The notes beneath the pieces are model-generated. The model was given only the letters and a program-made list of their open reading frames with translations. It had not been told where the DNA came from and searched no databases. Of a stretch of DNA of 64,000 bases, positions 5,988 to 27,773 are shown piece after piece (position 1 is the stretch's first letter; every line of letters starts with the position of its first letter). The DNA lies in contig CANCYR010000014.1 of the NCBI GenBank assembly GCA_947382355.1, positions 1 to 64,000 on the forward strand, read 5' to 3'. A program made the position numbers and the translations under genes. The DNA comes from an uncultured Lachnospiraceae bacterium. GTDB lineage: Bacteria; Bacillota; Clostridia; Lachnospirales; Lachnospiraceae.

Positions 5988-6386
5988 ATGAAAGAGAAAA
6001 AAAGAAATAGAAAGATTGCAGCGATTTTTTTAACAGGAATTTTTGCATTTCTCATGTTGATAAGAGTAGAGGCATATAATAGTTCAACTGCATTTAATGG
6101 AGGCACGATGACTTATACATGTACAGTTGCAGGAACGTTAGGAAAAGCCGGTAAAAGCTCAGCAGTTGCAAGTACTGGTTATGATGTAGGTGGATACATA
6201 CAAACGATTGGAGTATTTGGATATGATAGTGGCAGTTCTGCAATATCTAGCGGATATCAGGAAAGTGTTGCAACCGCAAGCACTGCTACTAGTATAAAAA
6301 CTGGAGTTACAAGCTACAAGGCAGTACATTCCATTTTAGACAGCAGCCGTTCCGTATTAAAAACTGTGAAAAAGACGGTGCAGTAA
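5988..6386 (+). CDS. Small secreted Gly/Ser/Thr-rich protein A (cassette 1)
   Basis: 132 residues. A classic Sec signal peptide (KEKKRNRK, hydrophobic core, cleavage after 'VEA' near residue 29) leaves a mature protein of about 103 residues rich in Gly, Ser, Thr, Ala and Tyr with a single cysteine ('MTYTCTVAG') and a basic tail ending 'KTVKKTVQ'. I do not recognise the family. It does not align clearly with proteins B (10648) and C (15878), yet it has the same size, signal peptide and position ahead of the same partner genes. GAAAGGA lies 8 bp upstream. It could be a bacteriocin-like, matrix or signal protein exported by this cluster; none of these is shown by the sequence. Confidence 0.7.
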   Translation: MKEKKRNRKIAAIFLTGIFAFLMLIRVEAYNSSTAFNGGTMTYTCTVAGTLGKAGKSSAVASTGYDVGGYIQTIGVFGYDSGSSAISSGYQESVATASTATSIKTGVTSYKAVHSILDSSRSVLKTVKKTVQ

Positions 6387-6414
6387 AACGGAAGTGTGTT
6401 TACAAGGAGGTTAT

Positions 6415-8625
6415 ATGAAAATCAGAGCGTTATTTAACAGTTTATCTTTAATTTTTCTTGCATTATGCTTGTCAGGCTGCACAGCTAAGGAAACGGTTAA
6501 GCTTCGTGATGAAAATAAAGAAGCCATTTTTCAAAGCGAAAGCCTTGATATAGACTGGGAGGATGAGGAAGGCAATAATTCTATGAATACAGGTGTGGAT
6601 TTGATTGCTGCCGGAAAAGGCAAAGCAGTAATGCATGCATTTGCGGTAGAAAAGGACCATTCTGCATATGAGCAAAAATTATACTTGAAAGATGAAAATA
6701 CAGACAGCATAAAAGAAATTCCTTTTCTATTTGAAGAGGATAGATGTTTATTGCTTGCAGTGGGCGAGGATGGGGTGATTACTATGCTCTTAACAAGTAA
6801 AAAGGATGATGCTTCTGTTACATATACGTTGACTCAAATAGATGATAATGGAAACGAAAAAAACAGGACAGATATATCGCGTCAGATAGAGGAGGTGGCA
6901 GGAGTTGATAATCTTTTGAAAATGGTGCCTGATAAAGAAGGCAATGTATATTTTTGGGGAGGTTCGCTTAAGGTTTATCGTTTGAATGTGGCAGATGGCA
7001 GAATGGTAGAAAGTGACGAAAATATACAAATACTTAATATGGCAAGAAACAAAGCCGGGGAAATGATATATGCGGTTTATGATAAGGATATGAATATAGT
7101 AATAAGGACAGGAAATCTGATGGATGGAAAGCTAAACGATATAGCCAGACTGCCTGCTAATGAAGATGGAGTTGGCATTTCAGAGCTGTTCCAAAGTAGC
7201 GTTTATGATTTTTGTTATAGAGATAAAGAAGCTGTTTATGGTTATGATGGAAATAAAAAAAGGTTCTACAAAATTCTGGACTTTGAACAATCCAATATTA
7301 ATAGTGAAAAATTATCGCAGCTGTGTGAAATATCAGCCTATACATTTATAGGCACCAGCACGGATACAAAAACTGCCGACAGGCTGTCGGGAGCCATGGT
7401 GTTTTCAGAGGAAACAGAACAGAAAGACAGAGCAGTACTTAAAATGGGAGGGATAAATATCCCTCCCATTATTCAAACAGCAGTTTCCAGATATAATCAG
7501 GCAAATCAGGAGTTCAGAATCGATATGCTCGATTATGGCAGCTATGAAAATCCTCAGGCAAAAATCAATGCGGAAATCATGGCAGGAGAAGGATTTGATT
7601 TATTATGCTTTAATGGCCTGTACAAAAAAGATTATGCGGACAAAAAATTATTAGAGGACTTATATGTTTATATGGATAAGGAGCAGGATATTGCTAAAAC
7701 GGATTTTATTGATTCTGTACTGGAGGTTTTGGAACAAGACGGAAAACTTTATGATATCACGCCGGGATTTGGTATTTCAACAGCTATAGGAAGGGCTTCT
7801 TTATTGAAGGATAAAGGCAGCATAGGATTTGGGGATATGGAAGAGCTGCTGCAAAGGAAGGAAAAACAAGGGAAAATGCAGATGTTTTACCGGGAGACGA
7901 GAGAGGGGATGCTGCGACATTTTTGTAAGGAAATTGACAGGAATTTTGAAAGACTGTCTCATGAAGATTTAATGAACTGGCTGGAAACAGCCGGACAGCT
8001 TCCAAAAGAAACAGAACAGACAAGCCTTTTGGAAGCCGTGAAAAACAAGGAATTTTTATTGATGACGGATATTTGCGCGGAATTTAATGATATATTGATT
8101 TATGAAAGGATGTTTGGAGAGGAAGCGGTATTTACAGGTTATCCCTTTCAGGAAGGAGATGGCACTGAGCTAAACTGCATGGGAATGAATGTGGGAATCT
8201 GTAAAAGCAGCGCCCATAAAGAAGCTGCATGGGAATTTATAAAAATACTGTTAGATGAAGAATTTCAATATTATGTCTGTTATCCAAACTGTTTTCCGGT
8301 CAGGAAAGACTGCATGGAAAGAGTTATCAGGATGGTATCGGCAGTAGAAGAATATACAGACCGGGATGGAAATAACGTAAAACCATACTGCTGTGAAATG
8401 ACTTATGATGATGTGGATGTGGTCATAGAAGCCATGAATGAGGAAGAAGAAAAGAGGTTTTGGAGTCTGGTGGATTCCATGAAATATGAGGATATGTGGG
8501 ATGAGAATATAATGAGTATTGTAAATGAGGAAGCAGAAAAATATTTTTCAGGACAAAAATCTCTGGAAAAAGCGGTGGACAGCATGGAAGAAAGAATAAA
8601 ATTACATTTTAATGAGATGAATTGA
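6415..8625 (+). CDS. Lipoprotein: beta-propeller-like plus solute-binding domain (SBP1)
   Basis: 736 residues. A lipoprotein signal with lipobox LSGC (Cys about residue 22) anchors it to the outer face of the membrane. Residues about 40-340 hold repeated strand-rich units of the 'D-x-x-G-N' kind ('DKEGNVYFWGG', 'YDKDMNIVIRTG'), suggesting a beta-propeller. From about 350 a family-1 extracellular solute-binding fold follows ('AVSRYNQANQEFRIDMLDYG', 'GEGFDLLCFNG', 'DGKLYDITPGFG', 'HKEAAWEFIKILLDEE'). AAGGAGG sits 5 bp before the ATG at 6415; the frame upstream of it has no ribosome site. One of five paralogues here. In cassette 1 it precedes the membrane protein, the reverse of cassettes 2 and 3. 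The ligand is unknown; the secreted protein upstream is a candidate partner. Confidence 0.8.
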   Translation: MKIRALFNSLSLIFLALCLSGCTAKETVKLRDENKEAIFQSESLDIDWEDEEGNNSMNTGVDLIAAGKGKAVMHAFAVEKDHSAYEQKLYLKDENTDSIKEIPFLFEEDRCLLLAVGEDGVITMLLTSKKDDASVTYTLTQIDDNGNEKNRTDISRQIEEVAGVDNLLKMVPDKEGNVYFWGGSLKVYRLNVADGRMVESDENIQILNMARNKAGEMIYAVYDKDMNIVIRTGNLMDGKLNDIARLPANEDGVGISELFQSSVYDFCYRDKEAVYGYDGNKKRFYKILDFEQSNINSEKLSQLCEISAYTFIGTSTDTKTADRLSGAMVFSEETEQKDRAVLKMGGINIPPIIQTAVSRYNQANQEFRIDMLDYGSYENPQAKINAEIMAGEGFDLLCFNGLYKKDYADKKLLEDLYVYMDKEQDIAKTDFIDSVLEVLEQDGKLYDITPGFGISTAIGRASLLKDKGSIGFGDMEELLQRKEKQGKMQMFYRETREGMLRHFCKEIDRNFERLSHEDLMNWLETAGQLPKETEQTSLLEAVKNKEFLLMTDICAEFNDILIYERMFGEEAVFTGYPFQEGDGTELNCMGMNVGICKSSAHKEAAWEFIKILLDEEFQYYVCYPNCFPVRKDCMERVIRMVSAVEEYTDRDGNNVKPYCCEMTYDDVDVVIEAMNEEEEKRFWSLVDSMKYEDMWDENIMSIVNEEAEKYFSGQKSLEKAVDSMEERIKLHFNEMN

Positions 8626-8739: not shown

Positions 8740-10449
8740 TTGAAGATAAAATACCACTTGAAGCTTTTGCGTAAAAATAAAATATTCCGCCTCAGCTTTT
8801 TTATCTTTTGTCTTTTTTTTATTGTAGAATTTTTAAAGGTATTTTATATGTCGGCAGTAGAAGAGGGCACAGGCTATCCTGTGGATGTGGCATATGGCAT
8901 GTTACAGGAAAATGTAAGCATGGTGCATTACTTCATTCCTGTTATTCTGTTCATGGCGTTGTATGCATTTCGTATAAACAAATTTGAACACATGGAAGAA
9001 ATAGTCTGTTCTATAGACAAAAGCAGAGAGCTTAGGGCGGAAAGATGGGCATTGAATATTTATAATCTGGCAATTACGGGGATAATTTTGCTCATTAATG
9101 TGACAGCTTTTTTTCAGAGCCATTATAAGCATGATATGGAACTTCTTTGCCAGATGCTTTTGTATGTTTTGGCAAATTATCTGGCTGTAGGAATGATGAT
9201 GATATCGGCAGCAGAAGCCGTATCACTTGTGCCAAAAGTAAAATATCAGGTGCTTTTGGCAGTTTTTATTACAATTTTGTTTGGCGGATATTACAAAGAG
9301 CAGCTTTATTATCAGATAGAAAACAAAGAACTGTTTTATAAGCTTTATGCACCGTTGCAGGTGATTACCCCCGGAGGCGGTAAATGGGGAATACAACAGC
9401 ACCTTGGGCTGCCAATACAGATACATCAGGTGGGTGCCATCCTGTTTTGGGGGATGCTGTTTGGCATGGCTGCAGCGATTGTGTTGAAAAGGAAAAAGAA
9501 ATGCCTGACAGGCTTTTTGCTTCTGTCAGTTTTTATTTTAATGCTGCCTTATGAAGAACTGGCGCAGTCCTATTATGGAGGCGGCGGTACGTGGTATCCG
9601 GTATACCATTATTATGATTACAATGGGAATGAAGAGCGGATAGTGGAGGAAAAGGAAAAACAGCCGGAATTTGCAGTAACGGATTATGAGATGGAATTTC
9701 ATGTTTTTACCTGTCTGTATGCGGAAGTGACTATGCACATACGGGAAAATGACTTGGAACAATACCGGTTTACCTTATATCACCCTTACCGGATAATGGA
9801 TGTGTGCAGTCAGGATGGGGAAAAGCTTACATATGAAAGAGACGGGGATTATCTGACAGTCTATCCCTTGGAGGGAAAAAGGCTGGAGCAGATAAAGATT
9901 ACTTATTATGGCAACGGAAAAGAACTATACAGCCAGATGGAAGGAATCAATCTGATGCCCGGAACCTGTTTTTATCCAATGGCTGGTTTTCAAAAAATAT
10001 ATGGGAAAAGTGAGTATGGTTATGGTTTCTATCCCTCTTATCTGCAGGAAAAAGCACATTTTCAAGTAAAGGTAATGACGCCTCGCAAGGTCTATTCTAC
10101 TTTAAAGGAAAATGGGAAAAACAGCTTTGAAGGGGAAGGCGATACCTTTGGTCTGTTTGCCGGATTATTGGAAAAAACAGTAGTGGGTGACACTGTCTTT
10201 ATTCATCCAAGATTGGAATGGATGGAACAGGGAGGATTTTTTGATTATGAAGATGTGGTGGAATATGCGGCACTTCTCTATGAGAAATCGGGACAGGAAG
10301 CATTTTCCCTGTCTGGTAAGACGATAATTGTATTGCCAGGTTCCGTTTCCGTGCAGTGTCCTATAGCTCATGACAGTTATTTATTGTTTTCGGATAGTTT
10401 ACGAATCGGTGAAATGGACTATTTGAAGGAAAAATTGGAGATAAGATGA
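8740..10449 (+). CDS. ABC-2-like membrane protein with M1-type extracellular sandwich (cassette 1)
   Basis: 569 residues starting with TTG, supported by alignment with the paralogue at 11049 ('KLLxKNKIF'). About 280 residues form six or so membrane helices, like ABC-2 permeases. A large outside domain follows (from about 320). Its order 'VTDYEMEF..FTCLxAxVTMxI..FTLYHPYR..YLTVYP..IKITYYGNGKELYS' is reminiscent of the N-terminal beta-sandwich of M1 aminopeptidases, which is known fused to ABC-2 permeases. There is no HExxH zinc motif, so it should bind rather than cut. By eye roughly three-quarters identical to the cassette 2 copy, indicating recent duplication. The upstream 8626-8739 gap holds no clear gene. 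No strong ribosome site is seen; AGAAGGGA is far (about 17 bp). Confidence 0.72.
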   Translation: MKIKYHLKLLRKNKIFRLSFFIFCLFFIVEFLKVFYMSAVEEGTGYPVDVAYGMLQENVSMVHYFIPVILFMALYAFRINKFEHMEEIVCSIDKSRELRAERWALNIYNLAITGIILLINVTAFFQSHYKHDMELLCQMLLYVLANYLAVGMMMISAAEAVSLVPKVKYQVLLAVFITILFGGYYKEQLYYQIENKELFYKLYAPLQVITPGGGKWGIQQHLGLPIQIHQVGAILFWGMLFGMAAAIVLKRKKKCLTGFLLLSVFILMLPYEELAQSYYGGGGTWYPVYHYYDYNGNEERIVEEKEKQPEFAVTDYEMEFHVFTCLYAEVTMHIRENDLEQYRFTLYHPYRIMDVCSQDGEKLTYERDGDYLTVYPLEGKRLEQIKITYYGNGKELYSQMEGINLMPGTCFYPMAGFQKIYGKSEYGYGFYPSYLQEKAHFQVKVMTPRKVYSTLKENGKNSFEGEGDTFGLFAGLLEKTVVGDTVFIHPRLEWMEQGGFFDYEDVVEYAALLYEKSGQEAFSLSGKTIIVLPGSVSVQCPIAHDSYLLFSDSLRIGEMDYLKEKLEIR

Positions 10450-10517
10450 AGAAATCCTTTAAGGAGCGTTTAAAAATATATAGGAAAAATATTTGGTAGG
10501 ATGTGGTAAATTGACAG

Positions 10518-10546
10518 TTACAACAAAAAACGAACGCTTACAACAA
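10518..10546 (+). promoter_or_regulatory. Tandem direct repeat before secreted protein B, likely LytTR site
   Basis: TTACAACAA at 10518-10526 and 10538-10546: exact copies with a 20-bp period, ending 5 bp before the -35 element. Geometry matches the agrB repeat at 4898-4928 (20-bp period, 7 bp before the -35). This is the best sequence evidence that the agr-like regulator controls the cassette. Confidence 0.55.
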
Positions 10547-10551
10547 GAAGA

Positions 10552-10580
10552 TTGATTTATTACTTAGGCTGTTTTAAAAT
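10552..10580 (+). promoter_or_regulatory. Promoter of secreted protein B
   Basis: TTGATT (10552-10557), 17-bp spacer, TAAAAT (10575-10580), leaving a leader of about 60 nt before the ATG at 10648. The tandem repeat lies immediately upstream. Confidence 0.6.
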
Positions 10581-11048: not shown

Positions 11049-12755
11049 ATGATAAAACATAACCTAAAACTTTTGTGCAAAAATAAAATATTTTTATTCA
11101 GCTATTTATCTTTCAGTTTTTTTCTAATAGCAGACTTCATAAAAGTATTTTACTTATCGGAAATGACTAAAAGTGCCATATATTCATTGAAAGTGGCATA
11201 TTATATATTGCAGGAAAATGCGCTTCTGGCATGTTATTTTATCCCGGTTATCTTGTTCATGTCACTGTACATATTTAATCTTAATAAATTAGAACATATG
11301 GAGGAAATCGTATGCGCTGTAGACAAAAGCAGGGAACTTCGGGCAAAGAGATGGGCACTGTTCATCTGGAATCTGGCAATTACAGGGATAATTCTGCCCA
11401 TGAATGTGGCAGCCTTTTTTCAGAGCCATTTTAAAAATAATACAGAGTTTCTCTGGCAGATGATTTTGTTCGTTTTGGCAAACTATCTGGCAGTGGGCAT
11501 GGTGATGATACTGGCGGCAGAAGCCATTTCCCTTGTGCCGAAGATAAGATATCAGATTCTTCTGGCTGTTTTTGTGGTAGTGTTGCTGGGCGGTTTTTAC
11601 AAGGAGCGCCTTTATGTCCAGATAGAAAACAAAGAGCTGTTTTATAAGTTTTATGCACCCTTTCAAATTATCACTCCCGGAGGAGGGGAATGGGCAATAC
11701 AGCAGCACATCGGTTTGCCAATACAAATACATCAGATAGGAGTAATTCTGTTCTGGGGCACACTGTTTGGCATGATGGCAGCTTTTGTGCTGAAAAGGAA
11801 AAAGAAATATCTGACAGGGCTGCTGTTTTTGTCGGTTTTTATTTTACTGCTGCCCTATGAAGAACTGGGACAGTCTTTTTACCATGGTGTGGGCACATGG
11901 TATCCGCCATATCATTATTATGATTATAACGACAATACAAAACGGATAGTGGAGGAAAAGGAAGAACAGCCTGAATTTGCAGTAACGGACTATGAGATGG
12001 AATTTACGGTTTTTACCTGTCTGAGTGCGAAAGTGACCATGTATATACGGGAAAAGGATTTAGAACAATACAAGTTTACCTTGTATCACCCTTATCGGAT
12101 TAAAGATGTGCGAAGTCAGGATGGGGAAAAGCTTAATTTTGAAAGAGATGGGGATTACCTGACGGTTTATCCGCCAAAGGGGAAACCGGTGGAGCAGATA
12201 AAGCTTTCCTATTATGGAAATGGGAAAGAACTATACAGCCAGATGGAGGGCATCAATCTGCTTCCGGGAACCTGTTTTTATCCAATGCCGGGCTTTCAAA
12301 AGGTGTATGGAGAAGGTGAATTTGGTTATGGTTTCTATCCGTCTTATCTGCAGGAAAAAGCTCATTTTCAGGTAAAAGTGAATACACTGCGCAGGGTATA
12401 TTCTACCTTAAAAGAAAACGGAAGAAACAGCTTTGAAGGGGAAGGAGACACCCTGGGGCTTTTTGCCGGTTTATTGGAAAAAACCGTAGTTGATGATACG
12501 GTATTCATTCATGCAAGGCTGGAACGGCTGGAGATGGGAGGCTTTTCCTCTTACGAGGATGTGGTGGAATATGCGGGACTGATTTATGAAAAGTCAGGGC
12601 AGGAAGCATTTTCCCTGTCTGGCAAGACGATAATTACGATTCCAAATCCTACATCCATGCATTGCCCGGTGGCTCATGACAGTTACTTGTTGTTTTCGGA
12701 TAGTGTACGAATCAGTGATATGGACTATTTGAAGGAAAAATTGGAGGCAAGATGA
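11049..12755 (+). CDS. ABC-2-like membrane protein with M1-type extracellular sandwich (cassette 2)
   Basis: 568 residues, close paralogue of the protein at 8740 (same helices, same 'GGGxWxIQQHxGLPIQIHQ' membrane loop, same outside domain). About six membrane helices in residues 1-280, then the outside domain with 'FTLYHPYRIKDV', 'FERDGDYLTVYPP', 'SYYGNGKELYSQMEGINL', 'PGTCFYPMPGF'. No metal-binding HExxH is present. The start has no adjacent ribosome site; translation may depend on the hairpin described at 11013. The stop overlaps the next ATG (ATGA). A likely role, by analogy with ABC-2/M1 fusions, is membrane-embedded handling or sensing of the secreted protein encoded just before it (inference). 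Confidence 0.75.
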   Translation: MIKHNLKLLCKNKIFLFSYLSFSFFLIADFIKVFYLSEMTKSAIYSLKVAYYILQENALLACYFIPVILFMSLYIFNLNKLEHMEEIVCAVDKSRELRAKRWALFIWNLAITGIILPMNVAAFFQSHFKNNTEFLWQMILFVLANYLAVGMVMILAAEAISLVPKIRYQILLAVFVVVLLGGFYKERLYVQIENKELFYKFYAPFQIITPGGGEWAIQQHIGLPIQIHQIGVILFWGTLFGMMAAFVLKRKKKYLTGLLFLSVFILLLPYEELGQSFYHGVGTWYPPYHYYDYNDNTKRIVEEKEEQPEFAVTDYEMEFTVFTCLSAKVTMYIREKDLEQYKFTLYHPYRIKDVRSQDGEKLNFERDGDYLTVYPPKGKPVEQIKLSYYGNGKELYSQMEGINLLPGTCFYPMPGFQKVYGEGEFGYGFYPSYLQEKAHFQVKVNTLRRVYSTLKENGRNSFEGEGDTLGLFAGLLEKTVVDDTVFIHARLERLEMGGFSSYEDVVEYAGLIYEKSGQEAFSLSGKTIITIPNPTSMHCPVAHDSYLLFSDSVRISDMDYLKEKLEAR

Positions 12756-14956
12756 AAAGAACATACATAGTAAAAAAAGCAGGTATTTTTCTTATTGCAG
12801 CTTTGATTGCGTTGACAGTATTTTTTTGTATAAAAGCTATAGTGGGAGCAGGACAGCAGGCGGTATTGGAAAAGCAGGAAGCGGGCATTACATTGATTGA
12901 ATCAAAGAATTTGCAGTCGGCAAGTCGGCTTTGTGTCATAAATGAAAGAGCGGCAGCTTATACATATCCTGCCTATGAACAGTATTTTGGCAGCTTTTGC
13001 TATATTGATAAGGAAGGAAATGTGGAAAGCGCTCCTTATAAGCTGGAAAAATTTGAAAAGGTACTGGACCTGTGCTCTGACGGACAGGGCGGGCTTCTTG
13101 TGTTGATTTCTCAGGCGACGGATATTTATATGAAGGAATATGATTTATCCGGCAATTGCATTCAGACATGGAATCTATCAGAAGACGTTGGGAATAAGCG
13201 GATAGAATCCGTGCGCATGGATGAAACGGGAGCGCTTTATGTGCTCATGGAGGAAGAAGGAGAGCGCTTTATTTCTGTATACAGCAGTCAGGGAAAGCTT
13301 CAGGAACAGATAAAGGGACTGCTGTCCGTGGGCTGCCTGAGAAATATAAAAAATGGAAGGATTGCCTATATTTATATGGAGGAAGAGGAGAGCGGCGCCG
13401 GCACAAGGCTTGCAGTGCAGACGTTTCAGGAAGCAAAGGCGGATGAGAAATACACACTTCCCGTCAAAAGCGTAGGGGATTTTGAAGCAATTCAGGATGG
13501 CGGCGCTTATGATTTGTATTACATGGATGCCAATTATCTGCTATATGGCTATGACTTAGGGAAGAAGCAGGGCACTGTTCTTGTAAATTTATACGAGGCA
13601 GGGCTTCCTGTCAATGAGATAAACAGATATGGCGTGACAGAAAATCTGGACATTTTTTTATCCGTTAATGCTTATGATGATAAGGAATTTTATGCGGGAA
13701 ATGATTTGTATTATGTGAAGCCGGGAGCAACCGTCAGTGACAGGCAGGAGCTGGTGCTGGCTGTGATTGATCCGGATGGGCTTATGACGGAAAATGTGGA
13801 AGAATTTAACGGAAGCAGTCAGGAGTATTTCATAAGACTTGAGGATTATTCCCAATATGAAGAGCCCAAAAAACAACTGGTGTTAGATATGATGTCGGGG
13901 AAGAACCCGGATATTATTTGTCTTTCAGGCGTAAATTCCTATCAGCTTATAAACCGGCAGCTGTTAGAAGAGCTTACCCCTTATCTGGAAAACAGCGAAT
14001 TACAGGGAAAGCTGGACGGCAATATCCTAAATATGCTTTCACAAAATGACGGGCTGTATCAAATCTGCACCCATTATACTATTGATGGAATGATTGCGGC
14101 AAAAGACACCCTGGCAGATGAAAAAATGCTTTTGCATAACATAGTGAAAACCGGGGAAGAAGAGAAACGTTTCATTATTGATTTAAACAGGGAAGAGCTG
14201 TTAGAGAAAATCATATCCAATAATTTTAACAGGCTGGTGGATTATAAGGAAAAGAGATGTCAGTTTGATACAGAGCAGTTTGTCTCTATGCTGGAATGTG
14301 CAAATGTCCTGTGGGATAAACGGTTAGAACACACGGACAGTTACGTGATTTTGGATTTTATTCTGGAGGGAATTGAAACAGGCAGGTCCATGGGGGCAAG
14401 ATGGGATAACAGCTCCTATGATATATGCAATTATCAGTTGTTTTCCAATTTATACCAGGGGGAAATTACCGTTGTCCCATATCCTGTTTTAGAGGAAAGC
14501 GGCGTTGGCTTTCTGGCAGGACGCAGCTATGGAATCTGCAGCCTGTCAGAGCATAAGGAGGCGGCATGGAGCTTTTTGGAAATGCAGCTGAAAAAGGAAA
14601 AACAGTTACGAGAGGCAGGCGGAGGGCTGATTCCTGTCAATGTGGAAGCATTGGAAGAATATATAAAAAGGCAGACTACGGTAGACGGATATATGGATGA
14701 CAGGCAGCAGTTTATAGAGCCGTTAGAGCAGGAAATCACTTTTTCGGATATGGTCATTTCATTAAAGCCCGTGTCAAAGGAAGAGGCGGGACAATTTCGG
14801 AAACTGATTGCTTCCATAGACCATCAATCTATAGGGGACGAAATGATTTTTGATATCATAAGGGAAGAGGCAGGAGCTTATTTTAACGGTGAAAAGAGCG
14901 CTAAAGAAACAGCGGATAAAATTCAGAGCAGGGTCAGTACCTATTTACAGGAATAA
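12752..14956 (+). CDS. Membrane-anchored propeller plus solute-binding protein (SBP2)
   Basis: 734 residues, start overlapping the preceding stop by 4 bp. The N-terminus is an uncleaved-looking hydrophobic anchor ('AGIFLIAALIALTVFF') without a lipobox, unlike SBP1. Residues about 45-330 are strand repeats resembling a propeller ('DGQGGLLVLIS', 'MDETGALYVLMEE'). From about 345 a solute-binding domain follows ('EEFNGSSQEYFIRLEDYSQY', 'GKNPDIICLSG', 'HKEAAWSFLEMQLK'). Residues 'EEPKKQLVLDMMSG' are nearly identical to SBP3, so cassettes 2 and 3 are more closely related in this gene than either is to SBP1. Membrane attachment suggests it works with the neighbouring membrane protein rather than as a scavenging binding protein. 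Confidence 0.78.
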   Translation: MKRTYIVKKAGIFLIAALIALTVFFCIKAIVGAGQQAVLEKQEAGITLIESKNLQSASRLCVINERAAAYTYPAYEQYFGSFCYIDKEGNVESAPYKLEKFEKVLDLCSDGQGGLLVLISQATDIYMKEYDLSGNCIQTWNLSEDVGNKRIESVRMDETGALYVLMEEEGERFISVYSSQGKLQEQIKGLLSVGCLRNIKNGRIAYIYMEEEESGAGTRLAVQTFQEAKADEKYTLPVKSVGDFEAIQDGGAYDLYYMDANYLLYGYDLGKKQGTVLVNLYEAGLPVNEINRYGVTENLDIFLSVNAYDDKEFYAGNDLYYVKPGATVSDRQELVLAVIDPDGLMTENVEEFNGSSQEYFIRLEDYSQYEEPKKQLVLDMMSGKNPDIICLSGVNSYQLINRQLLEELTPYLENSELQGKLDGNILNMLSQNDGLYQICTHYTIDGMIAAKDTLADEKMLLHNIVKTGEEEKRFIIDLNREELLEKIISNNFNRLVDYKEKRCQFDTEQFVSMLECANVLWDKRLEHTDSYVILDFILEGIETGRSMGARWDNSSYDICNYQLFSNLYQGEITVVPYPVLEESGVGFLAGRSYGICSLSEHKEAAWSFLEMQLKKEKQLREAGGGLIPVNVEALEEYIKRQTTVDGYMDDRQQFIEPLEQEITFSDMVISLKPVSKEEAGQFRKLIASIDHQSIGDEMIFDIIREEAGAYFNGEKSAKETADKIQSRVSTYLQE

Positions 14957-14972: not shown

Positions 14973-15620
14973 ATGTGGATAAAAAGAGGATATCGAATTT
15001 ATAGATTAAAGCAAAAGCAGATGGGATTGGTTTACTATATTCCAATAGGGGCAGCACTGGTTGTTCTGCCTCTGCTTTTTTTCGTTTTTCTTCGCAGGGA
15101 AGCAGGATTCCTTATATCGGAAACTTACAAAAAGCTGCTTGGAATCACCCAGACGGTTATTCCCTTTTTATCCGTATTTTGGCTTTTGTTTCAACTGGAG
15201 GAATGGCTGGAGGGCAGAAAGAGGGAATTGTATTGTTTTGTATGGAGAAAGCCAATTCTGGCAGGTGTTTTTTATTCCGTATATTTTAATTTGCTGCTAT
15301 TACCGGTGTACCTGTTTTATCATTTTTATTTGCGGGGATTTTTTTACGAATATTTTAGGATGATATGTATCTGTATCTTTTTTCAGGGAGCCGTTCTGCT
15401 ATTGCTGTTTCTGACGAAAAGTAACATTATAACGGTGCTTTGGGTGATTTTTTATATCTTGTTTTGTACAGGAACGAAAAAAAGCGGGGCGCTTTCCTAT
15501 GTTGTGGGCTTACCGGCAGGCATTGTTCGGGATTATTGTCGTAGCGGGATGTTTCTGCTTCTCGGAATGGGGCTGTTCTTTCTGGCAAATCTGGCAGGGA
15601 AAGGGGGGAATGATGGCTGA
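14973..15620 (+). CDS. ABC-2-like membrane subunit (cassette 2)
   Basis: 215 residues, about six predicted membrane helices, no cysteine-rich or catalytic motif. It is a paralogue of the protein at 20932 (shared 'KxxQMGLVxxxP' start, 'FLSVFW', 'GFFYEYFRI', 'VFFQG', 'DYFRAG/DYCRSG'). In cassette 3 that gene directly follows an ABC ATPase and overlaps it; here no ATPase precedes it, so it probably shares the ATPase encoded at 20120. GAGAAGGTG lies upstream of the ATG. Role inferred: membrane half of an exporter for the secreted protein or its immunity partner. Confidence 0.65.
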   Translation: MWIKRGYRIYRLKQKQMGLVYYIPIGAALVVLPLLFFVFLRREAGFLISETYKKLLGITQTVIPFLSVFWLLFQLEEWLEGRKRELYCFVWRKPILAGVFYSVYFNLLLLPVYLFYHFYLRGFFYEYFRMICICIFFQGAVLLLLFLTKSNIITVLWVIFYILFCTGTKKSGALSYVVGLPAGIVRDYCRSGMFLLLGMGLFFLANLAGKGGNDG

Positions 15621-15747: not shown

Positions 15748-15776
15748 TTGACACGAGGATAAATGTAGGATAAAAT
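15748..15776 (+). promoter_or_regulatory. Promoter of secreted protein C
   Basis: Consensus TTGACA (15748-15753), 17 bp, TAAAAT (15771-15776). No 20-bp-period repeat is visible upstream, so unlike protein B this promoter looks strong and independent of the tandem-repeat regulator. A long leader of about 95 nt follows. Confidence 0.72.
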
Positions 15777-20119: not shown

Positions 20120-20953
20120 ATGGGAATCGAGTTTCAAAATGTATGCAAGTCTTTCAAAAAGAAAGAAGTTTTACATGAGATAAGCTTAGAACTGAATCAG
20201 GGAATTTACGGTCTGTTAGGACCCAATGGGGCAGGAAAGACCACGTTGATGCGTTGTCTTGTAGGTTTACATAAGGTGAGTTCGGGAGAAATATGTATAG
20301 ATGAAGAAATGAAAAAAAGGGGAATCGGCTATCTGCCCCAAAGCTTCGGGCTGCATGGAAATCTGACGGTATATGAAAATCTGGAATATCTGGCAGCGCT
20401 GAAGAAGCTGCCGGATAAGGGGCTTGCAGAGCATATTTTAAACTGTATAGAAACGGTAAATTTAACGGAGCAGAAGCAGATGAAATGTAAGAAGCTGTCC
20501 GGAGGAATGTTAAGAAGGCTTGGAATCGCCCAGGCGCTGTTAGGGGAACCGGGAATCCTTGTACTGGATGAGCCCACAGCGGGGCTGGACCCGGAAGAGC
20601 GTCTTCGGATGAAGCAGCTTATGCGGCAGGTGGGGAAAAAGAGCATGCTGCTGATTTCCACCCATATCGTGGAGGACATGGAGAGCCTTTGCGACCAGGT
20701 CATCATAATGAATCAGGGCAGAATTTTGAAACAGGACAGCCAGCCGGAAATTTTAAAATATGCGGAGCATAAAATCTATATCGTTCCTGTAAAGGAAGCA
20801 GAACAGATAGAGGGGGAATATTCCGTATTGAAATCCTTTCAAAAGGAAGGGAAAGAGTATTACCGGATTGTATGTGAAAAAGAACAGGACATGGAATGGG
20901 AAAAGGAAGTTACCCTTGAGGATGCATATATATGTCTGTTAAAAGGCTTTTAA
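20120..20953 (+). CDS. ABC transporter ATP-binding protein
   Basis: 277 residues, a single nucleotide-binding domain: Walker A 'GPNGAGKTT' (34-42), Q-loop Q74 in 'YLPQSFG', signature 'LSGGM' (126-130), Walker B 'ILVLDEP' (146-152) and switch H182 in 'STHIVEDME'. The first 220 residues match the ABC-2/DrrA-type exporters; the C-terminal tail is short and variable. It overlaps the downstream membrane-subunit gene by 22 bp, so the two form a pair. It is the only ATPase in the 22-kb cluster and may energise all three cassettes as well as, less likely, the MalF/G-type permeases (which normally use a CUT1 ATPase with a longer C-terminus). Confidence 0.9.
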   Translation: MGIEFQNVCKSFKKKEVLHEISLELNQGIYGLLGPNGAGKTTLMRCLVGLHKVSSGEICIDEEMKKRGIGYLPQSFGLHGNLTVYENLEYLAALKKLPDKGLAEHILNCIETVNLTEQKQMKCKKLSGGMLRRLGIAQALLGEPGILVLDEPTAGLDPEERLRMKQLMRQVGKKSMLLISTHIVEDMESLCDQVIIMNQGRILKQDSQPEILKYAEHKIYIVPVKEAEQIEGEYSVLKSFQKEGKEYYRIVCEKEQDMEWEKEVTLEDAYICLLKGF

Positions 20954-21582
20954 AGAAAAATGAAATGCGCAGGAAGGAAATGGGATTGGTCTTTTGGGTT
21001 CCCCTGCTGGTTCTATTGATTGTGCTTCCGGTGTGGCTCTATGCCATACTTGAAAATGATTTATTGGAAGCATATGAAAAATATGGAGTTTTTTTGTCTG
21101 TTACAGAAGGAATCCTTCCTTTCTTTTCCGTATTCTGGATTGTATTAAGCGCTTATGACTGGGTGGAATCGGATGGATGGGAGCTGTATTATTTATATGA
21201 AAAAAAGCCGGACAGGGCGGCAGGATTTTATGGGGAAGTGTTTCATGTGCTCTTGTTGGTGTCGTATTTGTTTTATGGAGTTTGTTTAGAGGGCTTTTTT
21301 TATGAGTATTTCAGGATTGCTTCTGTCTGTGTGTTTTTTCAGGGACTGGCGGTGTGCCTTTTATATTTGCTGCGTTCACAGGTGATTGCTTATTTTATGG
21401 TTTTTCTATATGTTTTGTATTCCGGCTTTGCCTATTTAAATGGCGATAAGGGGCTTTTCTGTTATCTGAATGATATGCCAAAGAGTATGGGAGAGGATTA
21501 TTTCAGGGCCGGATGTTTTGGGCTTTCGGGTATTTTTCTCTGGTTTGCGGGGGCGATGGCTGGAAGGAGGCTTTCGGGGTAG
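20932..21582 (+). CDS. ABC-2-like membrane subunit (cassette 3)
   Basis: 216 residues with about six hydrophobic helices. Paralogue of the protein at 14973. Start overlaps the ATPase gene. Conserved aromatic segment 'GFFYEYFRIASVCVFFQG' in the middle. Presumed partner of the ATPase; no family name can be given with confidence. Confidence 0.68.
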   Translation: MSVKRLLKKNEMRRKEMGLVFWVPLLVLLIVLPVWLYAILENDLLEAYEKYGVFLSVTEGILPFFSVFWIVLSAYDWVESDGWELYYLYEKKPDRAAGFYGEVFHVLLLVSYLFYGVCLEGFFYEYFRIASVCVFFQGLAVCLLYLLRSQVIAYFMVFLYVLYSGFAYLNGDKGLFCYLNDMPKSMGEDYFRAGCFGLSGIFLWFAGAMAGRRLSG

Positions 21583-21612: not shown

Positions 21613-23790
21613 ATGAAAAACTATAGGGGAAAGTTTCTGTGTGCTTTGGCAATACTGGCAGTTATCTTAGTATTGGCGGGCTGCAGTAAAGAAGTGAAAC
21701 TAAAAGAGCCGGACGTAAATGGTTATGAGGCAGTCGCATTGGAGCTTGATGGGCTGGAGGAAGAAGAGTACATCTGGAATCTTTGTTGTAGTGATAATGA
21801 AATCTTTTTTTCTGCTTTTAACCGGAATGACAGCATAGAAGAAGGAGTGCAAAAAACACATGTGTATCAATATGATTTAAAAAATCAGCGAGCAGATAAG
21901 CTTCCTATCCTGCTAGAATCGGACAAACATATCCTATGCCTGTCAGAAAATGCAAAGGGAGAGTTTGTGATGCTGCTGTCAAGCGAAGACAAGTATTATA
22001 TGGCAAAATATGATGAGACAGGAGCCTGTATACTGGAAAAGGAAATTACGGAATCATTAGGCGGCATGGAAATGCATCAAGTTATATTTGACAGGGAAAA
22101 TCGTTTATATTATCTGGCAATGAATCAGATAAATGTATTTGATGAAACCGGAATGCCTTTACATACCTTTGAAACGGATGGAATGTTTTTTAATCCCTAT
22201 TTAGGCAGAGACGGGAATATATATGTAAGTAATTTTAAGGTGGATGGGGAAGAGCATATATGCAGATTGAATCTGCAGGAAAAAAGCCTTGAACAGTATG
22301 GAAAAAGTATAGAGGAAGAGTGGAATAAGCATTATGCAGGCGGGCTTGCAGAAAGTAAATATTGGGATTATATAGCAAATAACGGGCAATCTATAATTGG
22401 CGTGGATATAAAGAAGAAAAAGGCACAAAGACTGGTGGATTTAAAAGAAGCGGGCTTAAATCCGGAAATGCTGCAGGAAATTACGGAAATTGAAGAAAAT
22501 ACATTCCTTGTGCTTAACATGGATGGAACAAATGGCGGCAGAGAGCTTGTTTTATTAAAACCCTCTTTAGAAGAAGATAATGCAGAAGAAAAAATACACA
22601 TCACCATGGCAGGACTGCAGATAAATTCTTTTTTAAAAGAAGCAGTCTACCGTTTTAACAGGGAAAATCAGGAATACAAAATAGAAATAAAAGACTATCA
22701 GGGGGATTTGTCCAGACTCAGCGCAGATTTAATGACGGAAGGAACCATAGATTTACTCTGTCTGGATGGACTTCCCAAGGAGCGCTATGTAAAACAGGGG
22801 CTTTTATGCAACTTAAATTCTTTTTTGGAACAGGATGAAGAAATAAAAAAAGAAGATTTTCTGGAGCCGGTATATGACCTGCTGTCCAATCAGCAGGGGA
22901 TGTATTCCTGGACGCCGGGTTTTGCTGTGGAAACAGTGTTTGGAAAAGCCTCCCTGCTTGGAGAGGAATACAGCCTGACGCCTCAAAAGGCAATGGGTTT
23001 GCAACAGGAGCTGGCAGAAGGGAAAAAACTGTATTATGCCATAAACAGAGAAGAAATGATGAAAAAACTCATGGAAGCAAACCTGAACAATTTTGTAAAC
23101 CCGGATAATGGCACTTGTTCCTTCCAAAATGAGAAACTTATGAACCTTTTGGAATTTGCGGAAAAGTTTCCGGAAGAAGAGGAGGAAGATATGACAATGC
23201 CTCAAAAGGTTCAGGCAGACCAGGTGGTTTTTGTAAGGGAAACCATAACGGATTTTACCAGCTTTCTGTTTTATGAAAAGATGTTTGGAGAGAAAATTTC
23301 CTTTACAGGTTATCCCGCATATGACAATCCGGGAAATCTATTTTCATCAGCAGGGATGGAAACAGCAATTTTAGAGCAGTCAAGGCATAAGGAGGGGGCA
23401 TGGGAATATTTAAAATATATTACCAGTAAGTCCTATTTAAAGCAGTATTGCGATATGCAGTTTCTTCCTGTAAGAAAGGACTGTATTAAAGATTATATAC
23501 AGATAATGTCCGCAACAGAACCATATGTGGATGAGCAGGGACAGGAAAACAAAGCCTATCACTGCACCATTGGATATGATGATTATACAATAGAGCTGGG
23601 AGCGTTGGAGGAAGAGCAGATTTCCGGTTTTTGGACATTGTTAGAGCATATGTATTTGCCGGTGCAGTTAGAGAACGGCATATGGGAGCTGATTACGGAG
23701 GAAACAGAAAGATATTTCCATGGGGAAATATCCAAAGAGGAATGTGCCGGGAATCTGGAGAAAAGGATTTCTTTGTATCTGGATGAATAA
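21613..23790 (+). CDS. Lipoprotein: propeller-like plus solute-binding domain (SBP4)
   Basis: 725 residues. True lipobox LAGC (Cys about residue 24), so lipid-anchored like SBP1. N-half with propeller-type repeats ('DRENRLYYLAMNQINVFDETG', read in two strands), C-half solute-binding ('YRFNRENQEYKIEIKDYQG', 'EGTIDLLCLDGL', 'QGMYSWTPGFA', 'HKEGAWEYLKYIT'). GGAGAGGG precedes the ATG. It begins a second sub-cluster (SBP4, SBP5 pseudogene, two CUT1-type permeases), which may be a derived importer built from the same binding-protein family. Confidence 0.78.
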   Translation: MKNYRGKFLCALAILAVILVLAGCSKEVKLKEPDVNGYEAVALELDGLEEEEYIWNLCCSDNEIFFSAFNRNDSIEEGVQKTHVYQYDLKNQRADKLPILLESDKHILCLSENAKGEFVMLLSSEDKYYMAKYDETGACILEKEITESLGGMEMHQVIFDRENRLYYLAMNQINVFDETGMPLHTFETDGMFFNPYLGRDGNIYVSNFKVDGEEHICRLNLQEKSLEQYGKSIEEEWNKHYAGGLAESKYWDYIANNGQSIIGVDIKKKKAQRLVDLKEAGLNPEMLQEITEIEENTFLVLNMDGTNGGRELVLLKPSLEEDNAEEKIHITMAGLQINSFLKEAVYRFNRENQEYKIEIKDYQGDLSRLSADLMTEGTIDLLCLDGLPKERYVKQGLLCNLNSFLEQDEEIKKEDFLEPVYDLLSNQQGMYSWTPGFAVETVFGKASLLGEEYSLTPQKAMGLQQELAEGKKLYYAINREEMMKKLMEANLNNFVNPDNGTCSFQNEKLMNLLEFAEKFPEEEEEDMTMPQKVQADQVVFVRETITDFTSFLFYEKMFGEKISFTGYPAYDNPGNLFSSAGMETAILEQSRHKEGAWEYLKYITSKSYLKQYCDMQFLPVRKDCIKDYIQIMSATEPYVDEQGQENKAYHCTIGYDDYTIELGALEEEQISGFWTLLEHMYLPVQLENGIWELITEETERYFHGEISKEECAGNLEKRISLYLDE

Positions 23791-23872: not shown

Positions 23873-25976
23873 ATGAAATATCAGAATCGCTTTTTTACAA
23901 AACTTATATTTTTCATCTTTGAATTCCTTTTCCTTACCGGATGTGGGCATGAAAAAAGCATAATCACCACAATAGAAGACAATCCACAATCTGTTTATCA
24001 GATTTATCCGCTGAATCATTCTTTTACGGAAAATGAAATGATAGCGCTCGCCTTTGTTGCAAAGCAGCAGATATATGCCGTTACTGTACAGATGAAAACA
24101 GAACAAAATCCGGATATTCCATCTTCTTATAAATTTTACTCTTTGAATATGGATGGGGAAAATGCTGCGGAAATTCCTTTTGCCGTGGAAGCAAACCAGA
24201 GATTGCGTTCCTTTGCCCCGGATGGATTGGGAAATATGTTGATACTGTTGTCAGATAGAGAAAATTCAAAATACGATTTGTATCAAGTTGATAAAAATGG
24301 AGTTGTATTAAATCAATATGATGTTACAAATGCCGTAGCTGCCTTTACAGACATGCCTCCGGTTAAAACTATCATGGATGACAATCATATCTATTTTCTA
24401 AGTCCCGTTAAATTTTTGGTAACCAATAAGCTGGGAGAAATACTATATCAGTTTGAAGGCGCTTTTTCAGATATGGCAATGCTTTCCTCCGGCGAGATTG
24501 TTCTTTCCGCTTATGAAGAAAAGGACGGAAGCATTATTGAAAAATTTCATGTAGAAAATGGAAAGCTGAGCACACTTTATAAAATGCCGGAAGCAAGCCA
24601 GTCACAGGTCAATTATCTTTTGGCAAGTGAAGAATATGCATTTTATTATTATAACAAACAAGGGCTGCATGCTTATGATTGGGAAAGAGGTAAAACAATT
24701 CAACTGATTGACTGGAACAACTCAAATCTTAGCAGCGAATGGCTTTCCAATATATACGAGACTGCCAAAGGAGAATTTTTCTGCGTCAATTCAGAAACAA
24801 CCGGTAATCAGGAATATGAGATGATAAAGTTAAGTCCCGGAAAAGAGGAGGCAGGAGAAAAAACAACTGTTTATATTGCAGCCCCTTGCAAAAATAAATA
24901 CAGAACTGGCGGCCAAAGAAGACTTTGATGTAATCTGCCTGAAGAATATGCCGGAGCAAATATTGATAAACAGAGGAATGCTTACAGATTTACATACTTA
25001 TTTGGAGCAGGACAAGGATATAGGTGCGGATGATTTGGTAACCTCCGTTTTAGAAGCATTCAGCAGGAAGGGACATTTATACAGCATTGCCCCCGGATTT
25101 GGAATTTCAACCGTGATTGGAGCCGCAGGGCAGGTGGGAGACAAAACAGGATGGACAGTAGAAGAATTTCAGAAGCTGACCGGAGAAATAAAAGAAGAAA
25201 TGGACATTTTTTATGCACCTGCCAATGGAGAAATATTAAAACGTCTTACGGCTGTCAATTTGGATTCCTTTGTGGATTGGAAAAAGAGAAGCTGTTCCTT
25301 TGACAATGCTGCATTTATAGAATTTTTGGAATTTGCCGGACAGTATCCGGAAAGCAGTGACGTGAACGGAGCCAGCATGCCTTCCATGGTCCAAAATAAG
25401 GAATTGCTGTTAGTCCAAAATACAATTGTGGATTTTACGGATATTATGCTCTATAGCAGGCTGTTTGGAGAAAAAGCGGCTTTTATAGGCTATCCGGCTG
25501 TGGAAGGGACAGGAAATGCTTTTGACTGCCAGGGGATGAATATGGGAATCTTTTCAAATAGTAAAAATCCGGAAGGGGCATGGGAATTTATCAAATACCT
25601 ATTGTCGGAAGAATATCAGAAAAAATACTGTTATCCGGATTATTTTCCCGTAAGGCTGGAATGCCTGCAATATTACATGGACATTACTTCAGCGGATAAA
25701 CAGTTTATCACAGAGGAGGGTATTACCATTGAACCCTATACCTGTGAAATCACATATGATGATTACCAGGTAAAGCTGGGAGCAATGACAGAGGAAGAAA
25801 GGGAGATATTCTGGGAGCTTGTAAATTCTACCACAAAAACAAACACATATGAGGAAGAGCTTATGAATATTGTACTGGAAGAAGCCGGGGCTTACTTTCA
25901 GGCGCACAGGACGGCTAAAGATACGGCACAGATTATTGAGAAAAGGATAACTCTTTATTTAAGCGAACAACAGTAA
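23873..25976 (+). pseudogene. Lipoprotein SBP5, broken by an internal deletion and frameshift
   Basis: The first frame (23873-24928) has lipobox LTGC and the propeller-like half, then runs into a false tail after 'TTVYIA'. The second frame, from about 24879, resumes the family sequence at 'PLAKINTELAAKEDFDVICL' and continues to a normal C-terminus at 25976. Compared with SBP1 and SBP4, about 32 residues of the solute-binding domain ('..YNQANQEFRIDMLDYG..' region) are missing at the junction, and the loss is not a multiple of three. The gene is therefore inactivated by a deletion of roughly 95-100 bp rather than by a single-base error. Both halves are otherwise well preserved, so the event looks recent. 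A separate C-terminal product from an internal start is unlikely to be exported. Confidence 0.8.
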
Positions 25977-26005: not shown

Positions 26006-26857
26006 ATGAAACGATTAAAACAATACAGCTTCCTTTCAGTCAGCCTTTTGGGAGTGGCTATATTTTATCTGATTCCCTTTGGAGGTCTGATTTATTACTC
26101 CCTTGTGGACAATCCGGTGAGAGGAAGCTTTGCGGGGCTTGACAATTACATAGCGATTTTACACAATCAGGCATTTTTAAAGGCATTAAAAAATACGGTG
26201 CTTTTTTCTGCCCTGTCAGTGCCTCTGGCAGTTGGGCTGTCCTTGCTGATGGCACTGGCGCTTGAGGAAAATATTCCGGGAAGAAGTCTGTTTCGGACCA
26301 TTTTCCTAAGCCCCTTAATGGTTCCAAGCGCTTCGGTCATGCTGGTGTGGCAGGTGCTGTTTTGCTATAACGGAACCATCAACCGGTTTCTGGCACATTT
26401 AGGCCATGGAAAGACGGACTTTTTAAAATCAGATTATGGGCTTCTGGTAGTGCTGTTATTGTTTTTATGGAAAAATCTTGGCTACTATATGATTATTTAT
26501 ATGGCGGCTTTAAACGAGATTCCCGGGGAACTGCTGGAGGCGGCAAGAATGGATGGGGGAAGCGGTTTTCAAAGCTTTTGGTATATCAAGCTTCCGTATT
26601 TGTCGCCTTCCATATTATTTGTGGGACTGATGGCAATAGTGGGCTCCTTTAAAATCTTTAAAGAGGTTTATCTGCTGGCAGGCGCCCATCCCAATGACAC
26701 CATGTATTTACTGCAGCACTTTATGAACAATACCTTTCTGGCATTTGATTATCAGAAGCTTGCTACAGCCGCAGTCCTTATGTGCATTGGACTGACACTT
26801 ATCATCAGCCTGTTGTTTTTTCTGGAAAACAGGGTGGGAAGGAATCTGGAAGGGTAG
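26006..26857 (+). CDS. CUT1-type ABC sugar permease, MalF/UgpA-like
   Basis: 283 residues with about six membrane helices. The EAA loop 'ELLEAARMDGGSGFQSFWYI' that contacts the ATPase is intact, and 'IKLPYLSPS' follows as in CUT1 permeases. Together with the next gene it would form the membrane channel of a carbohydrate or oligomer importer. The matching binding protein would be the broken SBP5 just upstream or SBP4. No CUT1-type ATPase is nearby; in Gram-positives such permeases often share a distant MsmK-like ATPase. Confidence 0.88.
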   Translation: MKRLKQYSFLSVSLLGVAIFYLIPFGGLIYYSLVDNPVRGSFAGLDNYIAILHNQAFLKALKNTVLFSALSVPLAVGLSLLMALALEENIPGRSLFRTIFLSPLMVPSASVMLVWQVLFCYNGTINRFLAHLGHGKTDFLKSDYGLLVVLLLFLWKNLGYYMIIYMAALNEIPGELLEAARMDGGSGFQSFWYIKLPYLSPSILFVGLMAIVGSFKIFKEVYLLAGAHPNDTMYLLQHFMNNTFLAFDYQKLATAAVLMCIGLTLIISLLFFLENRVGRNLEG

Positions 26858-26867
26858 TATCACGGAA

Positions 26868-27773
26868 ATGAAAAGAATAAAAGGAAAAAAGAAAAAACGC
26901 AATTTTATACAAAAAGCTGTGCTGTTTCTGATTGTGGCGCTGTTTGCCACGTCCTTTGCCATGCCTATCCTGTTAACCATAACTAACTCCTTTATGAAGG
27001 AGGAAGAAGTGCTCATTCATTATGGGAATGTATATGGAAGCTATGGCTATGGGCAGGGGGACGGGTATGTTTCCAAAGAAGCGGACTTAAAGCTGATTCC
27101 CGACATGGTGAGCATAAAGCAGTATGAAACAGTCCTGCTTTTAAGCCCTGAGTACCTGCTCAAGTTTTGGAATTCAGTGATTCTGACAGTGCCCATCGTC
27201 CTATTTCAGATAGCGGTATCATTGGGAGCAGCATATGGATTTACAAGAATCCGCAATAAAAAAGGGGAAATCCTGTTCTTTATATATACACTGCTTATGC
27301 TTCTGCCCTTTCAGGTGACTCTTGTGCCCAACTATCTGGTGTCGGGAAAGCTTGGAATATTAAATACCTATTGGTCAATTATCCTGCCCGGCATCTTTTC
27401 CACCTTCAGCACCTATCTGCTGACTAAATTCATGCGGAGGATTCCGGTTTCGCTGATTGAGGCGGCAAGGCTGGATGGAGCCGGGGAGTGGAGCGTTTTT
27501 ACGAAAATCTGCATTCCCTTATGTAAAAGCGCAATTGTATCCGTGGCGATTTTGCTGTTTATTGATTATTGGAGCATGGTGGAGCAGCCTTTGATTATGT
27601 TGTCTGAGGAAGCGGCTTATCCGCTTTCCGTATATCTTTCCACCATCAATCAGGGAGAAATCACCCTGGCATTTGCAGTTGCGGTTATTTATATGGTGCC
27701 TGCCATATTTGTAATTTTGTATGGGGAAGATTATTTGATAGACGGTATTTCCTGTTATGGGGGAACAAAGTAA
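26868..27773 (+). CDS. CUT1-type ABC sugar permease, MalG/UgpE-like
   Basis: 301 residues, six or so membrane helices, EAA loop 'SLIEAARLDGAGEWSVFTKI' followed by 'CIPLCKS'. An unusually long outside loop after helix 1 (residues about 45-85, with Gly/Tyr-rich 'YGNVYGSYGYGQGDGYV') is not typical of MalG. It starts 10 bp after its partner. With SBP5 broken, the importer may depend on SBP4. Confidence 0.87.
   Translation: MKRIKGKKKKRNFIQKAVLFLIVALFATSFAMPILLTITNSFMKEEEVLIHYGNVYGSYGYGQGDGYVSKEADLKLIPDMVSIKQYETVLLLSPEYLLKFWNSVILTVPIVLFQIAVSLGAAYGFTRIRNKKGEILFFIYTLLMLLPFQVTLVPNYLVSGKLGILNTYWSIILPGIFSTFSTYLLTKFMRRIPVSLIEAARLDGAGEWSVFTKICIPLCKSAIVSVAILLFIDYWSMVEQPLIMLSEEAAYPLSVYLSTINQGEITLAFAVAVIYMVPAIFVILYGEDYLIDGISCYGGTK

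What the first reader, a model, noticed from the sequence alone, without database searches (positions are those of the whole stretch)
5988..27773. Quorum-linked multi-cassette system of small secreted proteins, M1-like membrane proteins and propeller/solute-binding proteins
Directly after an intact agr-type locus come three cassettes with the same parts: a small Sec-dependent protein, an ABC-2-like membrane protein with an outside sandwich domain, and a surface-anchored two-domain binding protein, plus ABC ATPase and membrane subunits in cassette 3. The order is the same in cassettes 2 and 3 and shuffled in cassette 1. I know of no named system with this set. Inference: the cassettes export, hold or recognise the small proteins, with the binding proteins as partners, under cell-density control.
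Basis: partly seen in the sequence, partly recalled or inferred. Interest (0 to 1): 0.88.

Follow-up and report, generated by a model that had tools for sequence, protein, structure and literature searches.

The report
Secreted protein plus odd ABC transporter
Next to a quorum-sensing locus this gut-type bacterium carries repeated copies of an unnamed operon, found sparsely across Gram-positive bacteria, that pairs a small secreted protein with an ABC transporter bearing a dead peptidase-like domain outside the cell; it most resembles a secreted antibacterial protein with its own protection pump, but nothing about its function has been tested.

Summary
The parts are real, but the grouping needs correcting. 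The conserved unit is S-M-A-P: a small Sec-secreted protein (S), a ~570 aa membrane protein (M), an ABC ATPase (A) and a ~215 aa membrane subunit (P). M occurs in 20 of 396 other genomes sampled from the family, in 10 of 397 others sampled across the phylum, and on Bacillaceae plasmids. S lies directly upstream of 25 of 45 untruncated M genes, against 5 of 126 control genes. M is predicted to be a NosY-like ABC-2 permease carrying an outward M1-aminopeptidase-like domain without its catalytic motifs. S2 is predicted to be a jelly-roll. The propeller/solute-binding proteins with MalF-MalG-HlyD-MacB form a separate Lachnospiraceae operon that joined S-M-A-P in this genus and one relative. agr is next to S-M-A-P in 5 of 19 other genera, about 1e-9 by chance. 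However, the agr promoter box is absent upstream of S2 and S3, and a terminator separates agrD from S1. Best guess (0.42): a bacteriocin-like secreted protein with ABC self-protection. No named system matched.

The parts
2818..3579 (+). LytTR response regulator (AgrA-like)
   Evidence: Pfam Response_reg 1.3e-15, LytTR 1.6e-14
3576..4895 (+). GHKL sensor kinase (AgrC-like)
   Evidence: Pfam HATPase_c_5 1.1e-22
4898..4928 (+). agr promoter direct repeat CCAAACTTCCC x2, period 20 (LytTR-type operator)
   Evidence: conserved in the Robinsoniella MAG (L078); two further near-matches in the genome
5110..5709 (+). AgrB
   Evidence: PF04647 3.1e-32
5688..5837 (+). AgrD cyclic peptide precursor
   Evidence: TIGR04223 1.1e-11
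5901..5945 (+). intrinsic-terminator-like hairpin between agrD and S1
   Evidence: fold -23.7 kcal/mol for 5890-5962, z -6.0, stem followed by a T run
5988..6386 (+). S1, small Sec-secreted protein of a second type, paired with SBP1
   Evidence: ORF and signal peptide; 55% identical homologue also directly before an SBP in G147
6394..8625 (+). SBP1 lipoprotein: N-terminal repeat domain + solute-binding domain
   Evidence: SBP_bac_8 6.2e-11; lipobox LSGC
8740..10449 (+). M1: ABC-2 permease with outward M1-aminopeptidase-like domain
   Evidence: 76% identical to M2; fold of M3
10515..10580 (+). S2 promoter: direct repeat (C)GCTTACAACAA period 20 then TTGATT-17-TAAAAT
   Evidence: arrangement conserved in L056 and L078; unique in the genome
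10648..11001 (+). S2, small Sec-secreted protein, predicted jelly-roll
   Evidence: AF2 pLDDT 85 over 117 aa, mature part about 93
11049..12755 (+). M2: ABC-2 permease with M1-like outer domain
   Evidence: profile hit 5.5e-229
12752..14956 (+). SBP2, membrane-anchored binding protein (no lipobox)
   Evidence: SBP_bac_1 8.9e-5, just below cut-off; 33% identical to SBP3
14973..15620 (+). P2, ~215 aa membrane subunit
   Evidence: 37% identical to P3; P-type gene follows A at most S-M-A-P loci
15748..15776 (+). strong sigma-70-type promoter of S3 (TTGACA-17-TAAAAT)
   Evidence: no agr box
15878..16231 (+). S3, small Sec-secreted protein
   Evidence: gap 18 nt to M3
16250..17953 (+). M3: ABC-2 permease with M1-like outer domain
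   Evidence: AF2 pLDDT 81.6, pTM 0.82; NosY Z 16.4, ERAP1 Z 15.4
17965..20094 (+). SBP3, membrane-anchored binding protein
   Evidence: SBP_bac_1 1.8e-5, just below cut-off
20120..20953 (+). A3, ABC ATPase of the ABC-2/drug-export type, probably shared by all three cassettes
   Evidence: ABC_tran 3.9e-28; closest NCBIfam models GldA, DrrA, gallidermin protection, all below cut-off
20932..21582 (+). P3, ~215 aa membrane subunit
21613..23790 (+). SBP4 lipoprotein, first gene of the neighbouring SBP-MalFG-HlyD-MacB operon
   Evidence: SBP_bac_8 2e-6; operon in other genera
23873..25976 (+). SBP5 lipoprotein gene, split by a frameshift (23873-24928 and 24876-25976)
26006..27773 (+). MalF- and MalG-like importer permeases
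   Evidence: BPD_transp_1 4e-17 and 3e-11
28025..30712 (+). HlyD-like and MacB-ectodomain-like proteins completing that operon
   Evidence: HlyD_3 1.9e-8, MacB_PCD 2e-9; same order in L122, L123, L124, L126, L130

Best explanation
The core is an unnamed four-gene operon type, S-M-A-P, present here in three chromosomal copies (two complete S-M pairs, one M with a different small protein, two P, one shared ATPase), with a fourth S-M-A-P copy elsewhere in the genome. S leaves the cell by the Sec pathway and folds as a small jelly-roll. M and P form a mixed pair of ABC-2 permease subunits driven by the ATPase A; M adds a seventh membrane helix that places a catalytically dead M1-aminopeptidase-like domain outside. 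Proposed mechanism: S (or a secreted partner toxin) is an antibacterial protein, and M-A-P is the producer's protection pump; M's outer domain binds the protein at the cell surface and the ATPase cycle expels or releases it, as LanFEG-type pumps do for lantibiotics. agr or other local regulators (LytTR systems, ECF sigma factors) switch it on. In this genus the operon lies beside an independent SBP-MalFG-HlyD-MacB operon and has acquired SBP genes. Shown: the gene set, its recurrence and the predicted folds. Inferred: secretion, subunit pairing, S-M binding and antibacterial role.
For: S directly upstream of 25 of 45 untruncated M genes against 5 of 126 control genes in the same contigs, p about 3e-13. 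M followed by A and P in nearly all untruncated loci. Sparse spread, as for bacteriocin clusters: 20 of 396 family and 10 of 397 phylum genomes. Bacillaceae plasmids carry S-M-A-P, three of them with a phospholipase A2-like secreted protein (CCxxHDxC motif; Pfam PLA2 models 1e-3 to 4e-3, below cut-off), two of these also with an S8 peptidase, YvrJ-like protein, glutaredoxin and sigma factor. M-A-P without a recognisable S occurs, as orphan immunity would. agr next to S-M-A-P in 5 of 19 other Lachnospiraceae genera and in one genome outside the family, p about 1e-9. A3's better NCBIfam models include drug-resistance DrrA and lantibiotic-protection ATPases. M fold: NosY-like permease plus M1 domain; no GxMEN in any of 30 M proteins and one isolated HExxH.
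Against: No activity data. S is not hypervariable: mature S is 67-71% identical to its orthologues where M's outer domain is 82-85%, and 91% at the second locus. S matches no bacteriocin family above cut-off; the one lactococcin-972 hit (0.019) spans residues 1-59 and so includes the signal peptide. The jelly-roll matches are generic. Nothing tested shows S binding M. The S proteins on plasmids are too diverged to prove homology with the window's S.
Confidence: 0.42

Rival explanations
1. M-A-P is a maturation or release machine for S: after Sec export, M's outer domain grips S and the ATPase cycle folds, loads or releases it, as NosDFY is thought to act on a partner outside the membrane. S would be a surface, matrix or signalling protein and not a toxin.
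For: Tight S-M order; the closest solved permease to M is NosY (Z 16.4); S jelly-roll has weak matches to spore-appendage Ena and C1q/TNF-like oligomeric proteins; S is fairly conserved within the genus.
Against: About 44% of M loci show no recognisable S; plasmid copies lie with a PLA2-like secreted protein, which fits conflict better.
Confidence: 0.25
2. M-A-P is a general envelope-stress or antimicrobial-detoxification pump and S is an accessory decoy or sensor that captures foreign compounds.
For: ECF sigma/anti-sigma pairs or two-component systems lie beside it in many genomes; M-A-P without S; ATPase similar to DrrA and lantibiotic-protection ATPases.
Against: S is a very frequent neighbour for an optional accessory; agr control would be unusual for a stress pump.
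Confidence: 0.18
3. The whole 5988-27773 block is one nutrient-uptake and sensing system: small proteins and binding proteins collect a glycan or peptide and MalF-MalG import it under agr control.
For: SBP, MalF and MalG are importer parts; small Sec protein + SBP pairs occur elsewhere (L120 next to agr, L127).
Against: S-M-A-P lacks SBP and MalFG outside this genus and G147; the SBP family occurs without M in 20 of 22 genomes. No importer-type ATPase was identified in the cluster.
Confidence: 0.1

Closest known systems
LanFEG-type lantibiotic protection ABC transporters (gallidermin/nisin immunity)
   Same: Two different ABC-2-type permeases plus one ATPase beside a secreted antimicrobial gene (layout from memory); A3 scores with the gallidermin-protection ATPase model (7e-47, below cut-off)
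   Different: M has a ~270 aa outer M1-like domain; no lantibiotic precursor or modifying enzymes seen; S is Sec-secreted and unmodified as far as the genes show
Lactococcin 972 system (bacteriocin, large membrane protein, ABC ATPase)
   Same: Small Sec-secreted protein + large membrane protein + ATPase (layout from memory)
   Different: S does not reach the TIGR01653 cut-off and M matches no NCBIfam immunity model
NosDFY / GldAFG ABC-2 complexes that act on an extracytoplasmic partner
   Same: M permease fold closest to NosY; ATPase closest to the GldA model
   Different: Partner domain is M1-like and fused to the permease; unrelated gene context
M1 metallo-aminopeptidases (ERAP1, LTA4H)
   Same: Fold of M residues 290-567 (Foldseek E to 2.6e-9, Z about 15)
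   Different: Catalytic motifs HExxH and GxMEN missing
TMcin bacteriocin clusters (PMC12328743)
   Same: Secreted antimicrobial with ABC subunits, spread over Gram-positives
   Different: TMcin has a membrane helix and metalloprotease TmcP; S is a predicted jelly-roll without such a helix in its mature part

Membership tests
agr quorum-sensing locus | AgrB, AgrD, sensor kinase and LytTR regulator together | tested here: met
Lactococcin 972 family | secreted protein scores above TIGR01653 cut-off (32.1 bits) | tested here: not met
   1 of 20 S proteins, 15.3 bits, residues 1-59 including the signal peptide
Lactococcin 972 family | matches the fold of mature lactococcin 972 | tested here: inconclusive
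   not among the rows shown for S2
M1 aminopeptidase (active enzyme) | HExxH and GxMEN motifs | tested here: not met
   0 of 30 M proteins with GxMEN, 1 of 30 with an HExxH
M1-fold proteins | N-terminal M1 domain fold | tested here: met
   (predicted structure)
ABC-2 type exporter | ABC-2 permease fold and an ATPase of the ABC family | tested here: met
   (permease fold predicted)
LanFEG immunity transporter | scores above curated cut-off of the lantibiotic-protection model | tested here: not met
   A3 159.9 bits against 309.75
LanFEG immunity transporter | protects the producer against its own peptide | not testable with these tools
   needs a deletion and sensitivity assay
Anti-phage defence system | match to PADLOC models | tested here: not met
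   no hits at 1e-3 for six proteins
agr regulon (cassettes 2 and 3) | agr promoter direct repeat upstream | tested here: not met
   box found at agrB and at two other loci only

The most novel reading that the evidence does not exclude
S-M-A-P is an undescribed, phylum-wide class of Sec-secreted jelly-roll antibacterial proteins whose producers protect themselves with an ABC exporter that has turned a dead M1 aminopeptidase domain into an outside toxin-binding trap, in several lineages under agr quorum control.
Probability: 0.3. Interest if true: 0.82.

Novelty: new variant of a known kind. Interest (0 to 1): 0.6.

Why it matters
If right, it adds a class of secreted antagonism proteins and a new kind of self-protection pump to gut Lachnospiraceae and to plasmids of Bacillaceae, outside the reach of the Pfam and NCBIfam models searched here for S and M, and gives agr loci of gut commensals, whose targets are mostly unknown to my knowledge, a testable target. 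It also shows a peptidase fold reused as a presumed binding domain on an ABC permease.

Tried and rejected
One integrated S-M-SBP-MalFG system: rejected because the SBP operon and S-M-A-P are distributed independently. Lactococcin 972 membership: not met by sequence; no lactococcin 972 row in the structural lists shown. TMcin: different parts. Phage origin or defence system: no PHROG, PADLOC or phage-genome hits. Known RNA elements or tRNAs: none. Hypervariable S: not seen within the genus. Named genome scan with the broad M alignment: not accepted by the tool, so a close alignment was used and gave three loci. Order-level search found no M outside the own genome; because few candidates per genome were scored, frequencies are lower bounds. 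DUF6147 (2e-5 to a second small protein in L096): no papers and no plasmid relatives. Literature searches turned up no description of the gene set among the papers listed.
Full report
Observation. The agr locus is complete: LytTR regulator, GHKL kinase, AgrB and AgrD. Neither S nor M of the window has a convincing Pfam or NCBIfam match.

What the conserved unit is. A profile of M found it in 20 of 396 other family genomes and 10 of 397 others across the phylum; a fourth copy lies elsewhere in the own genome. The neighbourhoods show the same order again and again: S, M, ABC ATPase A, ~215 aa membrane protein P. A small Sec-type ORF lies directly upstream of 25 of 45 untruncated M genes, against 5 of 126 control genes (Fisher p 3e-13). 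The same unit sits on plasmids of Geobacillus, Halobacillus and Priestia megaterium, in all three with a phospholipase A2-like secreted protein, and in two of them also with an S8 peptidase, a YvrJ protein, a glutaredoxin and a sigma factor. The PLA2 matches are weak (Pfam 1e-3 to 4e-3) but carry the CCxxHDxC motif.

What the binding proteins are. The SBP family occurs in 22 of 150 family genomes, 20 of which showed no M, and forms its own operon SBP-MalF-MalG-HlyD-MacB(-SBP) in several genera. In this genus (window, L056, L078) and in G147 the two operon types have become interleaved. The named relatives are a Robinsoniella sp. MAG and two Lachnospiraceae MAGs; in L056 and L078 the cluster is flanked by the same genes as in the window where visible (ClpB-like in L056, galE-like in L078).

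Structures. S2: seven strands, mean pLDDT 85, mature part about 93. Matches are to jelly-roll and sandwich proteins in general: best Z 9.3, YomS; GOLD, C1q and TNF domains at about 7-8, no Foldseek hit counted below 1e-3. M3: residues 1-244 match NosY (Z 16.4) and ABCG1 (Z 15.2); residues 290-567 match M1 aminopeptidases (ERAP1 Z 15.4, and Foldseek 2.6e-9). A further hydrophobic helix after a KKK loop (residues ~247-263) would place this domain outside (inference from the sequence and the model). GxMEN is absent in all 30 M proteins and HExxH in 29 of 30, so it is probably a binding domain.

Regulation. The agr promoter carries CCAAACTTCCC twice with period 20, conserved in L078. In the whole genome only two other near-copies exist, at two loci encoding secreted or membrane-anchored proteins (one with RCC1-like repeats). 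S2 has a different direct repeat of the same period just upstream of a weak -35, conserved in arrangement in L056 and L078; in L078 a second LytTR regulator lies directly before S2. S3 has a strong promoter and no box. A terminator-like hairpin with z -6.0 separates agrD from S1. So direct agr control of the cassettes is unproven and for S2/S3 rather unlikely. Yet S-M-A-P lies beside agrB in 5 of 19 other genera (G053, G395, G255, G330, G248), where AgrB occurs about 0.7 times per genome, chance about 1e-9, and in L102 outside the family. AgrD-like peptides were found by pattern in L059 and L063, by eye in L065 and L068, and by match in L066.

Mechanism. The best single reading is secreted antagonism with ABC-type self-protection. 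Points in favour: sparse and plasmid-borne distribution, neighbouring quorum or ECF-sigma regulators, S exported by Sec so that no exporter is needed, an ATPase scoring with resistance and protection pumps (below cut-offs), M-A-P without S, and a PLA2-like partner on plasmids. Points against: S is moderately conserved, has a generic fold and matches no known bacteriocin. A release or maturation machine in the manner of NosDFY remains a serious rival.

Limits. The genome samples are partial and only a few candidates per genome were scored, so frequencies are lower bounds. S proteins are too diverged to prove common descent by sequence; 'S' is defined by position, signal peptide and size. Structures are predictions. 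The propeller part of SBP was not modelled.

Noticed in passing
L142, L143, L144 (Bacillaceae plasmids): S-M-A-P lies with a ~240 aa protein ending in a phospholipase A2-like CCxxHDxC domain; in L143 and L144 also with an S8 peptidase, YvrJ-like protein, glutaredoxin and sigma factor: possibly a plasmid-borne toxin cluster.
   Followed up: partly
L140 5945, L141 5502 (own genome contigs C37, C38): The only other near-copies of the agr promoter box lie upstream of a 266 aa membrane-anchored protein and of a secreted protein followed by an RCC1-repeat protein: candidate agr targets.
   Followed up: partly
L135 466-7280 (own genome contig C3): A second complete agr locus follows another small Sec protein, a lipoprotein, ABC-2-like permeases and an ATPase: a parallel arrangement with different parts.
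   Followed up: partly
window 23873-25976: SBP5 gene is split by a frameshift between 24876 and 24928; real decay or assembly error cannot be told.
   Followed up: no
L078 10676-11365: In the Robinsoniella MAG a second LytTR regulator gene lies directly upstream of S2, near the conserved S2 direct repeat.
   Followed up: partly
L096 7451-7918: A second small secreted protein upstream of S matches DUF6147 (2e-5), suggesting that this Pfam family may be related to S.
   Followed up: partly
L145 6391-7304: Two nearly identical tandem S-like genes diverge from M-A-P on a Priestia filamentosa plasmid.
   Followed up: no
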